From Hyphococcus sp. (lineage in GTDB: Bacteria > Pseudomonadota > Alphaproteobacteria > Caulobacterales > Parvularculaceae): a DNA stretch of 54,548 nucleotides. Within the stretch, counting starts at the first letter, position 1, and the number at the start of each line of letters is the position of its first letter. A program made the position numbers and the translations under genes. The stretch covers positions 1 to 54,548 of the forward strand of contig JABDJK010000069.1 in assembly GCA_013002535.1 (NCBI GenBank). Direction: 5' to 3'. The notes under the pieces were generated by a model. That model was not told the origin of the DNA and did not search any database. It saw only the letters and a program-made list of their open reading frames with translations. This document shows positions 50,341 through 54,548 of this stretch, in pieces.

Positions 50341-50916
50341 TTACCATTGTCCGACGCCGCCATTTGTTACTTTTGGATCAATCACCACCGGCGTCTTGCG
50401 CCCGCCCTGACTAACGACCACGCCGAGATTGTACTCGAACCCACACCCAACAAGTTCCGCCGGGGCGTGAAACCGAACTGCCATCATCCGTGGCGGCCGG
50501 GCAAATCTTCGGCGACGCTGAACGGATCTAGGCGTTGACCGGCATTCATGAAAAATGCTTTTGCCGGATCGGCTTCCCATTTCCAGGCGCCGGGCGACAA
50601 TTTAAATACGATCATGGTGTCAGCGGATAACTGCAAATCGAACGGCGTCGCGTCTTCTGCGTCGCCTGCATTGTGAGGCGTCAAATCGCCTAGCATGTCG
50701 TCGAGTTGCCACGCGTAATCCGGCAGGCCATTGGCGCGCTTCGCGGAAGAAACGCCGAACTCGCTATCGCTATCGAGACCAATCGACATCTGCGGCCGGA
50801 TTAGAAGAGTCATTTGGCGGCGGCGTAAATGACGGGTCATCAAGGGCGCAAGTATCGGCAAGGGCCGGCGACATCACCAGTGTTGCCGCGACGGTTAAAG
50901 CAGACAATCTTTTCAC
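50341..50916 (-). pseudogene. Exported DPKVxNGGVG-tail protein, frame disrupted twice
   Basis: From GTG 50916 the frame gives a signal peptide (VKRLSALTVAATLVMSPALA), then DTCALDDPSFTPPP, and stops at a TAG after VDWSR near 50773. The next frame continues sensibly (SIGLDSDSEFGVSSAKRANG, PDYAWQLDDML, AWKWEADPAKAFFMNAG) until about 50490. The original frame then resumes with VRFHAPAELVGCGFEYNLGV and ends VVIDPKVTNGGVGQW. The two shifts cancel. The ending matches the two upstream lipoproteins, so this is a third family member. Either it is decayed or two small indel errors exist in the assembly. It lacks the lipobox Cys of its relatives. Confidence 0.7.
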
Positions 50917-51009
50917 GAGCAATTCTTTTAATGGGTAAGGGACAGGGTAAACGCAAACGTATGTGATTTGCGTTTACCCCCCCTTCACTGAAGGCAAGTT
51001 ACGAGCGGT

Positions 51010-51618
51010 TTATCTATTACCAACCCCGCCATTTTGAACTTTCGGATCAAGAACTACTCGCCCGCTGGGGCCGTTGATGGCGACGGAATATTCATAGGTC
51101 TCCGTGTCATCGTCCTTGTCGGTAAAGGTGAGCGTTTTCAGATCAGAAGAAACCGCCGGCGCGCCGAATTCCGCTGTCGGCCATGAGCCCGCCCCGAAAA
51201 CCGGGGTCGGTTTGGGGCCGGTTTGCGGGTAAATGATCATCGCCACCGCCTGAAACGGATCGCTCGGGAAGCGCCAGCCAGCATTATAGGCGTCATCGCC
51301 AATCGAAATCGACAAGGCAACATCACCGGCAGGAAAATGTGACAAATCAATATCGCCGCTGATACCGTTGAGTGATATGCCGCTGCTATTGCCGCACTGC
51401 CCATTTGGATTGCAGGTAACGCTACTTTCCCCAACAAATTTCGGTGCGCCATTGACGATGCCAATTGATATATTCGAGGAATTGCCCTGCGTTTCCGCGA
51501 CCATCGCCTCCACCATTGGTTTGGCGGATGCTTCCGGTTCCGGCGCCGCGGTGTGTTCGCAGGCGCTGACGATAAGTCCGAGCGCCGCTATTGGGAAAAG
51601 AATGTATTTATTTGTCAT
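51010..51618 (-). CDS. Lipoprotein with DPKVQNGGVGNR tail (family member 2)
   Basis: This 202-residue protein has a lipoprotein signal ending IVSAC (Cys20). A low-complexity Ala/Glu stretch is followed by a beta-rich domain (NISIGIVNGAPKFVGESSV; ALSISIGDDAYNAGWRFPSD; LKTLTFTDKDDDTETYEYSV). It ends VVLDPKVQNGGVGNR. Shared with family member 3 (50341) is a W[RK][FW]xxDPxxA segment (GWRFPSDPFQA), and with both others an xYEY[SN][LV] strand before the tail. Two Cys in VTCNPNGQCG may pair. It lies 21 bases after member 1. Outer-membrane or periplasmic lipoprotein of unknown function. Confidence 0.75.
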   Translation of the reverse strand: MTNKYILFPIAALGLIVSACEHTAAPEPEASAKPMVEAMVAETQGNSSNISIGIVNGAPKFVGESSVTCNPNGQCGNSSGISLNGISGDIDLSHFPAGDVALSISIGDDAYNAGWRFPSDPFQAVAMIIYPQTGPKPTPVFGAGSWPTAEFGAPAVSSDLKTLTFTDKDDDTETYEYSVAINGPSGRVVLDPKVQNGGVGNR

Positions 51619-51639
51619 GTTACTCTCCTGTTTGTTGAT

Positions 51640-52446
51640 TTAACGGTTGCCAACGCCGCCATTTTGTACCTTTGGATCGATAATGATCCGCATGCCGCTT
51701 TTGATCGAATTGGCGCCGTCAAGATTGAGGGTCATCGCGAGAGAATACTCGTAGGTCTGTAGCTGATTATTGTCGTTCTGGTCCCAGACATAGATGGAGT
51801 TGGGGTCGCTTTTCAGGATGATTGGCGGGCATAATTCAAAGGAGGGCGTGCGGCTGTCGGCCTGCCAGGCGGCTTCGCCAAATAATGGCTGTTCGCAAGT
51901 GACGCCGGTTTGCGGATTGTTCGTGCAAAGATTGACGGCAAGGGCGTCATACGCATAGATGCCGTCGGTGCTGGCCGTCATCGCGCTTGTGTCATAATCC
52001 CACGAATAATGATTGGAGACAGTGCCCGGGGCGTAATCGCCGCTCGCCGGGTCTTTGTATCTATCGCTATTGTTCCAGCGCAACATCACGCCCGTGCCCG
52101 CCGGCGTCGGTGCAATGGTGAGCGCGGAATTGGGCGGCTGCACATTTTCGCCATGGTTTGAGCCCAGATAAAATGTATTGCCGTCCTGCAGCATGTTTTC
52201 ATCGCCGGAATAAAGGCCGAGATAATAACTCGGTTGATAGTTCGGATTGGCGGTGATGAATTGCTGGAGCGCAGTTGGCGTCATGCAGCCCGCTGGCGGC
52301 CACTGGCCGCCGCCCTCAGCCTCAAATGACGCCATTGTTTCCGCTTCAGCGGCGTCTGCTGCATTACCGTCCTGTGATGATACGGTCTCGCAAGCGCTCA
52401 TTAACATTGCCGATGATCCGGCGAGAAGAAGTGTTTTCAATTTCAT
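51640..52446 (-). CDS. Lipoprotein with DPKVQNGGVGNR tail (family member 1)
   Basis: This 268-residue protein has a lipoprotein signal ending LMSAC (Cys19). The mature part is rich in Asn, Asp, Tyr and Pro (PNYQPSYYLGLYSGDENMLQ, VSNHYSWDYDTSAM), suggesting a beta-sandwich. Four Cys (AGCMTPT, NLCTNN, VTCEQP, ELCPP) could form two disulfides. The end, TYEYSLAMTLN then MRIIIDPKVQNGGVGNR, is identical over the last 12 residues to the downstream lipoprotein although the rest differs. It starts 63 bases after the TIR-TPR stop on the same strand. Function unknown. Confidence 0.75.
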   Translation of the reverse strand: MKLKTLLLAGSSAMLMSACETVSSQDGNAADAAEAETMASFEAEGGGQWPPAGCMTPTALQQFITANPNYQPSYYLGLYSGDENMLQDGNTFYLGSNHGENVQPPNSALTIAPTPAGTGVMLRWNNSDRYKDPASGDYAPGTVSNHYSWDYDTSAMTASTDGIYAYDALAVNLCTNNPQTGVTCEQPLFGEAAWQADSRTPSFELCPPIILKSDPNSIYVWDQNDNNQLQTYEYSLAMTLNLDGANSIKSGMRIIIDPKVQNGGVGNR

Positions 52447-52509: not shown

Positions 52510-54548
52510 CTACTCCGTGTCAGGAATAAGAAACGGATGGTCGTCGAAAAGTCGAATAAATTCAGGATGGCGAAATCCAGGTTTATGCAAGGATTGCGAG
52601 AGATCGGACGCAAGTTCATGTTGCCCCATCTGTGCGTGTGCCTCGATCGCCAGAGTCAGTGTTTTTGGTCCATGTTTTTGAATATCGCCTGCAAGAAAAG
52701 AAACGATCGTCGCCCAGTTATCCGTGAAATCGTCATTGATCCGGGCCTGACATGCGAGCGATGTCAAATAAATCCGAAGGACAGCCACGTCAGATGCTCC
52801 CTCTTCGACGAGGGGACGGAGCCGCAATAATAGCGGATCAATTTTTTCCGCTGCTTCTTCTAACCGATCTTGTCTTTCCGCCAGAATTGCCAACTGCAGT
52901 TCTGGCAATGCTGCGACTTTTCCGCGCCAACGTAAATTTGTTGGATCTTCTGCAATAAGACGATCAGCAATGGTAACTGCTGTTGTTAAGTTTGAGCTTG
53001 CATTGACGTAATCGCCAGTATGTGTGAGCGCTTCGCCCAAAATTGACCGCGCCAGAACGGCGCGATCTGCGAGGTGCAAATTTTTCGGATCAGCGTTGAA
53101 TAGCCTGTCCGCAAGCGCAGACGCTAATTGCGCTTCGTCTATGGCGCGATCGATGCGTCCTTCCGACAACAGAATGTCGGCGTAACTGTATCTCGCGATC
53201 GATTCATTATTTCCGAGGGTCGCATCAGTCTCAGTCCCGGCTTGCACCGCTTCATAAATCGCTAATTCCGACTCGCGCGCTTCGCGTGCTTCGCGGATTT
53301 TCGCCTGATGATAGAGCGCCTCAGCGAGCCATGAATAAGATTGGCCCGCAGCGATCTGTCGATTCACGGCGCCAGGATATTTTTCGGCTAATGCTTTTGA
53401 GACGCCCAGGGATTTGCGAAACCACTCTTCGGCTTCGGCAGCGTTTCCTTGGTCCATTTCCAGCGTGCCGAGATTGGAGTAGGAATATTCAAGCTCCGCC
53501 TGAAAATCATCATTGCCGGGATCAATCTCGATGAGGCGCTTGGCTTGGTCGTAATATTGTGTCCAATAGCGCCGCGCCGTGTTGGCGTCGCCGCGCTGCC
53601 AGGCGATATAGCCGACCCAGAACACTGATTGGGAATGATCGAAAATCCGGTCCGGATTATCCGGGTCGCGGCGCAATTGTTCTTCCGTGGTATTTGCAGC
53701 AGCGGTGTAGGCTTCAAGCGCGGCATCCAGATCGCCGCGCAGATTATCGACTTCGCCAACGAGGAGTTGCGCTCGTGCGCGTCGGCCTAGTTCGTCGGGA
53801 GAAGCTGAGGAAAGATCACGCTTCGCATAGTAACCAAGCGCTCGTTCACCGACGGTATCCAAGATATCCAGTCGCCCTACGGCATCCAGCTTTTTGCGGA
53901 GATCGGTAAGCATGAATTCAATTTCATCCTCCGCCTCGCTGCGTGCGACTAACGCGTCATCGCGCGCTTTCACGGCTTCCGCTTCTGCCACGCGCGCCAC
54001 ATCCCGTTGGCGCATCGCGTCAAAGGCGAGGGCGCCCATGGCGACAGCGACCGCGCCGAAGCCGGCCGCCATCGCCCGCATGCGCTGGTTGCGCCGGGCC
54101 TGTTCGCGCTGGATGAGGTCGTCGAGTTTTGCGCCGGTGAGGCCCGCGACAAGTTTAGAAATCGCGTATTTCTTGCCGTCGCCGCCTTTGCGCAAATCGG
54201 CTGCAATGGGTTCCGCATGCTCGCCGGTCATCTCGCCGACGTCGTCGAACTTGAACCGCAAAGCCTCTGGAAAACATTCCGTATCAGGATCGTCGGAGAA
54301 AGGCTCACCGCCGACAATCACGGCGCGAATGCGTCCTTCGCCATGCATCTTTTTGAACGCTTTAATTTCTTCGTTGACCCATTGGCTTTGCGCCGCCGCC
54401 GGCGAACACATCACCAATAGGAACATCGACGCTTCGAGCGCCGCTGTTATTTCGTGGCCAAGGTCGTCAGCAGTCGCCAGTTCATCACGGTCGCGGAAGA
54501 TTGGCGCCAGGCGACGCGGGATCGGGCCATGTACGGTTTCGCGGCCAA
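52510..54548 (-). CDS. TIR domain-TM-TPR protein (5' end beyond right edge)
   Basis: The frame runs off the right edge; at least 678 residues are present. The first visible residues (GPIPRRLAPIFRDRDELATA, DDLGHEITAALEAS, LLVMCSPAAAQSQWVNEEI, KAFKKMHGEGRIRAVIV) are the second half of the TIR/SEFIR-type domain that usually starts with a SYSH motif. A membrane helix follows (AAGFGAVAVAMGALAF), then a coiled-coil segment and the conserved LRKKLDAVGRLDILDTVGER motif. About 10 TPR-like repeats run to the C-terminus. An internal ATG at 54426 would cut the TIR domain and is not the start. The linked lipoprotein genes start 63 bases downstream. A receptor-like or NAD-consuming role is inferred from the domain only. 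Confidence 0.88.
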   Translation of the reverse strand, partial: GRETVHGPIPRRLAPIFRDRDELATADDLGHEITAALEASMFLLVMCSPAAAQSQWVNEEIKAFKKMHGEGRIRAVIVGGEPFSDDPDTECFPEALRFKFDDVGEMTGEHAEPIAADLRKGGDGKKYAISKLVAGLTGAKLDDLIQREQARRNQRMRAMAAGFGAVAVAMGALAFDAMRQRDVARVAEAEAVKARDDALVARSEAEDEIEFMLTDLRKKLDAVGRLDILDTVGERALGYYAKRDLSSASPDELGRRARAQLLVGEVDNLRGDLDAALEAYTAAANTTEEQLRRDPDNPDRIFDHSQSVFWVGYIAWQRGDANTARRYWTQYYDQAKRLIEIDPGNDDFQAELEYSYSNLGTLEMDQGNAAEAEEWFRKSLGVSKALAEKYPGAVNRQIAAGQSYSWLAEALYHQAKIREAREARESELAIYEAVQAGTETDATLGNNESIARYSYADILLSEGRIDRAIDEAQLASALADRLFNADPKNLHLADRAVLARSILGEALTHTGDYVNASSNLTTAVTIADRLIAEDPTNLRWRGKVAALPELQLAILAERQDRLEEAAEKIDPLLLRLRPLVEEGASDVAVLRIYLTSLACQARINDDFTDNWATIVSFLAGDIQKHGPKTLTLAIEAHAQMGQHELASDLSQSLHKPGFRHPEFIRLFDDHPFLIPDTE

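What the first reader, a model, noticed from the sequence alone, without database searches (positions are those of the whole stretch)
50341..52446. Tandem family of exported proteins sharing a C-terminal DPKVxNGGVG tail
Three consecutive minus-strand genes end in IIIDPKVQNGGVGNR, VVLDPKVQNGGVGNR and VVIDPKVTNGGVGQW. The rest of the sequences is far more diverged, apart from a YEY[SN][LV] strand before the tail and, in two of them, a W[RK][FW]xxDPxxA segment. Two are lipoproteins and one has a normal signal peptide. Conservation at the extreme C-terminus with a variable body suggests recognition of the tail by a partner, a protease or an export factor, or a shared closing strand of the fold.
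Basis: seen in the sequence. Interest (0 to 1): 0.7.

Follow-up and report, generated by a model that had tools for sequence, protein, structure and literature searches.

The report
Self-cleaving-protein relatives paired with TIR receptors
The shared tail is the last strand of a small protein fold related to a little-understood self-cutting bacterial protein, and these proteins are encoded right beside a membrane receptor with an immune-type TIR domain, which suggests they work as its dedicated partner.

Summary
The tails are real, but the third gene is broken: signal peptide, body and tail lie in different frames. The tail is not a free tag. In models of a relative (good) and of the 51010-51618 protein (weak) it is the closing strand of a beta-sandwich. 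Both models match first SO1698 of Shewanella, the solved member of Pfam DP-EP/DUF1888, in which, by recall, the Asp-Pro bond of this strand is self-cleaved. No Pfam or NCBIfam model detects the window proteins above cut-off, and they lack the Ser two residues before the Asp. The main result is genomic. Genes ending in DPxxxN lie directly downstream of receptors built as effector, one membrane helix, then a particular TPR domain. The effector is TIR (window, own contig C36, G319, G343, G505) or winged helix plus nSTAND1. Of 17 receptors met only through receptor searches, 16 have DPx[IVM]xN and one DPQVRS; background is 3 of 455 long ORFs. All three genomes of 249 with PF08985 genes show the pairing. 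Two partner loci lack it (L039, G058). The searches listed found no description in print. Binding and cleavage are untested.

The parts
52510..54546 (-). TIR-TM-TPR receptor gene, 5' end cut by the end of the contig (678 aa read): partial TIR with SQWVNEE, one predicted membrane helix, juxtamembrane IEFMLTDLRKKLDAVGRLDIL, TPR
   Evidence: Pfam TPR_12 E=8.5e-10, ThsB_TIR 0.003 and TIR_2 0.07 (below cut-off) on the truncated part; complete homologues give TIR_2 E=1e-12 to 6e-16; A8 profile E=1.1e-114, in-sample; TM by hydropathy
54019..54075 (-). predicted single transmembrane helix of the receptor
   Evidence: Kyte-Doolittle mean 1.65 over 19 residues, 35 residues before the FMLTDL motif; in the other 21 receptors the best helix lies 18-24 residues before it. 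Three of the 22, the window's among them, score below 1.66
53047..53988 (-). juxtamembrane + TPR module shared between TIR receptors and wHTH-nSTAND1 receptors
   Evidence: alignment A8; residues 193-549 of the own-genome C36 TIR receptor match the wHTH-nSTAND1 receptor of G275, E=2.5e-31
51640..52446 (-). P2, 268-aa predicted lipoprotein with C-terminal DP-EP-like domain
   Evidence: lipobox MSAC; match to P1, E=2e-6; A4 profile E=5.6e-32, in-sample
51643..51687 (-). closing-strand motif IIIDPKVQNGGVGNR of P2
51010..51618 (-). P1, 202-aa predicted lipoprotein, DP-EP-like beta-sandwich
   Evidence: pLDDT 62; top 11 PDB hits all SO1698, E 1e-4 to 1e-3
51013..51057 (-). closing-strand motif VVLDPKVQNGGVGNR of P1
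50341..50916 (-). P3, degraded third copy: signal peptide, body and tail in different frames
50344..50388 (-). closing-strand motif VVIDPKVTNGGVGQW of P3

Best explanation
P1, P2 and the broken P3 are tandem, exported, divergent relatives of the DP-EP (DUF1888) beta-sandwich family, and the conserved DPKVxNGG is the closing strand of that fold, containing the Asp-Pro bond that SO1698 self-cleaves (recalled). They form one module with the TIR-TM-TPR receptor gene just upstream. SHOWN here by computation: the fold match, profile links between the groups, and the near-constant pairing of DPxxxN-strand genes with one TPR receptor family whose effector is either TIR or winged helix plus nSTAND1. 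INFERRED: the beta-sandwich protein is a dedicated regulatory subunit or ligand of the receptor. It docks on the TPR domain outside the membrane, and its state (intact, cleaved, closing strand released, or removed) sets whether the cytosolic effector fires: NAD-consuming TIR here, transcription by winged helix in the other branch. Most uncertain: whether the window copies still self-cleave. They kept Asp-Pro but have Val/Ile where SO1698 has the Ser that appears to be needed, so a non-cleaving partner is at least as likely.
For: Fold: relative L034 modelled at pLDDT 83.8, 113 of 176 residues at 90 or more. Its top 12 PDB hits are all SO1698 (E 4.6e-7 to 3.2e-4), next hit E 0.022. P1's own low-confidence model gives SO1698 as its top 11 hits. 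Sequence: a profile of wHTH-receptor partners hits SO1698 at E=4.4e-6; of four such partners scanned, L120 and L121 pass Pfam's DP-EP cut-off, L113 and G742 give no DP-EP hit. Profile-profile, TIR partners vs DP-EP plus wHTH partners: 90% probability, E=1.4e-6; tail removed 76%, E=2.3e-5. Linkage, receptors met only through receptor searches (G343, G275, G115; L111-L117 and L119-L124; G873): 16 of 17 have DPx[IVM]xN just downstream, the other DPQVRS; background 3 of 455 long ORFs. Partner-first: TIR receptor directly upstream in 7 of 8 loci; receptor upstream in 3 of 3 profile hits outside the family (G319, G505, G742) and in 3 of 3 PF08985 genomes. Specificity: five more distant TPR homologues with other N-termini have no such gene downstream, 0 of 5.
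Against: No Pfam or NCBIfam model reaches the window proteins above cut-off. The TIR-partner profile A4 finds no SO1698 chain in the PDB by sequence. Subgroups compared alone are weak: P1 group vs DP-EP 25%, vs DP-EP plus wHTH partners 8.6%; close lipoprotein group vs DP-EP 15%, and P1 group vs the wHTH partners not significant. Ser at -2 of Asp-Pro: 2 of 16 TIR partners, 13 of 17 wHTH partners, 4 of 4 Pfam DP-EP. No interaction, cleavage or TIR activity was tested. The partner's side of the membrane is inconsistent: lipoproteins here, but no signal peptide by a crude hydropathy test in the own-genome C36 partner and in 15 of 17 wHTH partners, although the TPR should lie outside if the effector is cytosolic. 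Two partner loci have no receptor upstream: L039 and G058:C382, where the gene upstream of the two partners is something else. Most loci come from one family of bacteria, so the 17 are not independent.
Confidence: 0.66

Rival explanations
1. The partner is an effector, not a receptor subunit: the receptor only controls its expression or release, and the (self-cleaving) sandwich acts elsewhere in the envelope.
For: Winged-helix receptors could regulate the adjacent gene; partners occur in tandem with different export signals (L144 has one without and one with a signal peptide; the window has three).
Against: The gene stays paired when the effector is TIR, for which I know no role in transcription, so what is constant is the TPR module plus partner. 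Genes nearly touch or overlap: gaps -3 to +14 nt in eight of nine wHTH pairs measured; the ninth (L120) is -52 with the first start codon and +10 with the ATG used later.
Confidence: 0.17
2. The partner is an inhibitor that keeps a toxic TIR (or STAND) receptor off, an antitoxin-like arrangement; its loss or cleavage triggers the response.
For: Immediate downstream gene in nearly every case; TIR domains with the SxWxxxE stretch are often toxic NADases (recalled).
Against: No direct data; the window carries extra copies and a broken one; wHTH receptors need no antitoxin. This is a sub-case of the best explanation with a fixed sign.
Confidence: 0.3
3. The tail is a recognition tag read by an export factor, protease or surface partner.
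For: The most conserved stretch between P1, P2 and P3 is C-terminal.
Against: The tail is a folded strand in the models. Signal-less relatives in other classes keep DPxxxN; 6 to 44 residues follow the DP. Residues after NGG are not conserved.
Confidence: 0.04
4. The neighbourhood is coincidental: tandem duplicates that happen to sit beside a TIR gene.
For: In G100 the TIR gene is on the opposite strand; L039 and G058:C382 lack an upstream receptor.
Against: 16 of 17 receptor-first cases plus the partner-first cases, in alpha- and other proteobacteria, against 3 of 455 background ORFs.
Confidence: 0.02

Closest known systems
DP-EP family (Pfam PF08985, DUF1888), type structure SO1698 of Shewanella oneidensis (PDB 3n55, 3njf-3njn)
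   Same: Beta-sandwich; closing strand D-P-x-[IV]-x-N with the Asp-Pro bond; in the three PF08985 genomes seen, same position downstream of a TM-TPR receptor.
   Different: Window proteins fall below every family model, are predicted exported lipoproteins, lack the Ser before the Asp-Pro, and pair with TIR rather than winged-helix receptors.
Winged helix (Trans_reg_C) - nSTAND1 - TM - TPR receptors
   Same: Same kind of membrane helix, juxtamembrane motif and TPR module, same downstream partner.
   Different: Effector is winged helix plus nSTAND1 NTPase instead of TIR.
Known bacterial TIR systems (Thoeris ThsB, TIR-SAVED, TIR-NLR)
   Same: TIR_2/ThsB_TIR domain with SxWxxxE.
   Different: PADLOC scores are weak and cover only part of the TIR (best SAVED_TIR about 1e-8); membrane-anchored TPR receptor with a beta-sandwich partner; the C36-type copy of the module (not the window's) sits near mutM in several relatives, which does not look like a mobile defence island.

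Membership tests
DP-EP (PF08985) | matches the Pfam model above its cut-off | tested here: not met
   P1, P2 and the P3 body: no DP-EP hit, nor any of the 11 relatives of A1. wHTH partners L120 and L121 pass (25.7, 25.9 vs 25); L113 and G742 do not.
DP-EP (PF08985) | SO1698 beta-sandwich fold | tested here: met
   Foldseek E=4.6e-7 for relative L034; P1 E=1e-4 on a model of pLDDT 62. Predicted models only.
DP-EP (PF08985) | Asp-Pro in the closing strand followed by x-[IV]-x-N | tested here: met
   P1 DPKVQN, P2 DPKVQN, P3 DPKVTN; 36 of 37 tabulated partners have N five after D.
DP-EP (PF08985) | residues needed for self-cleavage in SO1698 (D37, S114, D116, P117, inferred from PDB chain lengths) | tested here: not met
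   D116-P117 kept; S114 is Ile in P2 and Val in P1 and P3. D37 by eye: Asp in P1 (GDIDLS), Asn in the close lipoprotein relatives, not found in P2; three of the four PF08985 genes also seem to lack it, so it is not constant in the family.
DP-EP (PF08985) | self-cleavage at Asp-Pro | not testable with these tools
   Needs protein.
DP-EP (PF08985) | encoded beside a TM-TPR receptor (seen here in 3 of 3 PF08985 genomes) | tested here: met
   Window receptor at 52510-54546, 63 nt upstream of P2.
TIR domain receptor | TIR_2 fold with catalytic Glu | tested here: inconclusive
   The window copy is truncated and below Pfam cut-offs but has SQWVNEE; complete homologues pass TIR_2, and SxWxxxE is in 10 of 11 TIR receptors within the first 160 residues (G343 has a long N-terminal extension and was not scanned further). 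That this Glu is the catalytic one is recalled.
Known anti-phage TIR systems (PADLOC) | match to a defence-system model over the full protein | tested here: not met
   Window protein none; homologues partial and weak.

The most novel reading that the evidence does not exclude
Bacteria use a membrane receptor with interchangeable immune-type effectors (TIR, or winged helix plus STAND NTPase) whose dedicated ligand is a small self-cleaving beta-sandwich protein; Asp-Pro cleavage or release of its closing strand is the switch read by the receptor's TPR domain. This would give the orphan DP-EP endopeptidase family its first function.
Probability: 0.3. Interest if true: 0.82.

Novelty: new variant of a known kind. 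Interest (0 to 1): 0.62.

Why it matters
DP-EP/DUF1888 is, to my knowledge, a structurally solved self-cleaving family without a known biological role. A near-constant pairing with one receptor family, seen in alpha- and other proteobacteria and across a swap of effector between winged helix/STAND and TIR, turns that orphan into a testable signalling module. It also adds a membrane-anchored, TPR-sensing TIR architecture with a built-in partner to the bacterial TIR repertoire.

Tried and rejected
Direct Pfam, NCBIfam and PDB sequence searches with the window proteins found nothing above cut-off; P1's and P2's relatives likewise. PADLOC was run on ten receptors and relatives' partners, not on P1 or P2. 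Protein searches of plasmids and phages found nothing: P1 in both, the L034 partner in plasmids only. I first dismissed the G505 hit as chance because shadow frames hid the genes; the receptor search showed a real TIR receptor plus partner. VV20781 and other weak NCBIfam hits (E about 0.2) were not pursued. A tag read by an export factor was rejected. Phage defence as the sole role was neither supported nor excluded.

Receptor matches not counted. TIR-only matches (G143, own C9, G191, G326) and weak TPR-only matches; of these I looked at L062, L063, L066, L067, L069, L070, L077 and L078 and saw no DP gene, but several loci end inside the gene; L068, L071-L073, L075, L076 and L079 were not looked at; all but G742 (the query) and G873 match only part of the protein and were not looked at; three long matches had no locus (G1071:C3, G1068:C3, G1069:C232), G1077 is split by contig ends, and the weaker L125-L132 showed no partner though several end inside the gene; L133-L139 were not looked at; one opposite-strand ORF near the G566 receptor has DPHLLS in its last 45 residues; I take it as chance.

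Literature searches with no description of the pairing: (search listings only). Passages only were seen of PMC7159879, PMC8195603 and PMC11655445 (which cites Osipiuk et al. 2012, J Biol Chem 287:19452, for a self-cleaving Shewanella endopeptidase). That paper is not held; Asp116-Pro117 self-cleavage and the Lys98-Asp116 link are recalled.

Full report
OBSERVATION. The two intact ORFs 51640-52446 and 51010-51618 (minus strand) and their tails are as described. In the whole genome a degenerate DNA pattern for DPKVxNGG occurs three times, all in this window, and never reversed. The third copy is not an intact gene: signal peptide, body and tail are in different frames. A relative in another genus of the family (L050) has the same protein in one frame apart from a gap of N and matches the two window pieces in two different frames. 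It is therefore a pseudogene or an assembly error.

FAMILY. By protein search P1 has relatives in genomes of its own bacterial family, which the record titles name Parvularculaceae. Aligned, they share D-P and N-G near the end, an aromatic Y-x-Y strand before it and a GN/GD-[FIV]-D strand. Beyond NGG the ends differ. The own genome has a further, signal-less relative on contig C36 in which 44 residues follow the DP of DPMIKNGG. No Pfam or NCBIfam model reaches any of the 11 members of A1 above its cut-off.

NEIGHBOURHOOD. A TIR-TM-TPR gene ends 63 nt upstream of P2 in the window (cut by the contig end). The same kind of gene lies directly upstream of the partner in 7 of the 8 loci found through the partner (L034-L038, L040, L041; not L039), on own contig C36 and in G319, and in G505. 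In G050 only the TPR part is left at the contig edge; in G100 the receptor faces the partners from the other strand; in G058:C382 the gene upstream of the two partners is not a receptor. Complete receptors carry TIR_2 plus TPR, one predicted helix and a conserved juxtamembrane motif. In G742 the upstream gene is instead Trans_reg_C plus nSTAND1 plus TPR. The TPR part of the TIR receptor matches wHTH-nSTAND1 receptors (G275 E=2.5e-31, G115 E=1.5e-24), so the constant unit is TM-TPR plus partner.

COUNTS. Receptors met only through receptor searches: G343, G275 and G115; 13 more in the order of G275 (L111-L117, L119-L124; L110 repeats G275); G873. Of these 17, 16 have a downstream protein ending DPx[IVM]xN and G873 has DPQVRS. 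Receptors found again in receptor searches but first met through the partner, or the finding itself: own C36, the window, G319, G493, G505; all five have the partner. The 13 are related, so the cases are not independent. What was left out of these counts is told under Tried and rejected. Background: 7 of 459 other ORFs of 100 aa or more (mechanical calls, shadow frames included) had DPx[IVLM]x[ND] in the last 40 residues; four of these are further family members, leaving 3 of 455. In one search five matches lie below 1e-80, all with the partner, but four of them are rows of the search model and only G505 is new. Five weaker matches (1e-33 to 1e-55; G566, G594, G501, G512, G530), which have other N-termini, have no such gene downstream.

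FOLD AND IDENTITY. AlphaFold2 of relative L034 with the alignment A5 gives pLDDT 83.8: a sandwich of nine strands in which the DPDGQN stretch is confident and the last four residues are not. Foldseek against the PDB returns 12 SO1698 chains first (E 4.6e-7 to 3.2e-4), then a gap to 0.022. P1's own model is weak (pLDDT 62) but has a similar strand order and again SO1698 as the top 11 hits. A profile of wHTH partners finds SO1698 by sequence alone (E=4.4e-6). Of four wHTH partners scanned with Pfam, two pass the DP-EP cut-off (L120, L121) and two give no hit (L113, G742). Profile comparison links TIR partners to DP-EP plus wHTH partners at 90% (E=1.4e-6) and 76% without the tail. Subgroups alone are weaker: close lipoproteins vs DP-EP plus wHTH 78%, P1 group 8.6%; P1 group vs wHTH partners not significant. 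The TIR-partner profile does not find SO1698 by sequence. The three genomes (of 249) with PF08985 genes all have them directly after a wHTH-nSTAND1-TPR receptor; one has two in tandem, the second with a signal peptide.

ACTIVE SITE. In the PDB set the entries D37A, S114A, D116A and P117A are listed as 128-residue chains, while wild type, K98A, P115A and Q118A are listed as 119. I read this as the first four being uncleaved; the paper itself was not available. In the table (37 partners), D-P is in all and N five residues after D in 36. Ser two before D is in 4 of 4 Pfam DP-EP, 13 of 17 wHTH partners (G742 and G873 counted here) and 2 of 16 TIR partners. Left out of that table: P3, G058's second gene, the two G100 genes, and the second ORFs of L114 and L115. 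P1, P2 and P3 have V, I, V. Self-cleavage in the window copies is therefore doubtful by the SO1698 route.

MECHANISM. Shown computationally: fold, linkage, effector swap. Inferred: the partner is a dedicated subunit or ligand of the TPR ectodomain controlling the effector; the sign and the role of cleavage are unknown. A difficulty is that many partners lack a signal peptide by a crude hydropathy test (15 of 17 wHTH partners), while a receptor with a cytosolic effector and one helix would put its TPR outside. Either those partners are exported otherwise, or the topology differs, or they act inside.

PRINT. Searches and the passages gave no description of the pairing. The library lacks most subscription papers.

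Noticed in passing
L144:11098-12051, L145:8509-9462, L146:6403-7497: All three PF08985 loci also have a gene that looks like a PAS/GGDEF protein nearby (C-terminal AADTALYRAKAEGR-like stretch; identified by eye).
   Followed up: no
L114:5269-5682, L115:342-755: A second DP-EP-tailed ORF close to the receptor-partner pair, on the other strand.
   Followed up: no
L051 (own contig C36) and L034, L036, L038, L040, L041: The C36-type TIR receptor-partner pair sits within three genes of a gene that looks like mutM/fpg (LPELPEVETVRRG-like start; by eye), suggesting an old chromosomal locus rather than a mobile island.
   Followed up: partly
window 51010-52446 versus G000:C36 partner (L051:8979-9569): The same genome has exported lipoprotein partners and a signal-less partner for the same receptor architecture; which side of the membrane the TPR faces is unresolved.
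   Followed up: partly
L048:45-485: G058 carries a partner that combines a stretch like the close lipoproteins (GPYVGAQF ... NDDGRTYRYSL) with a P1-type end (VMDPKIQNG) in one protein.
   Followed up: no
G000:C9:42120 (L078:1489-3378): A third TIR protein in the genome (629 aa) is followed by a signal-peptide gene; only its first 96 codons were read, with no DPxxxN end in that part.
   Followed up: partly
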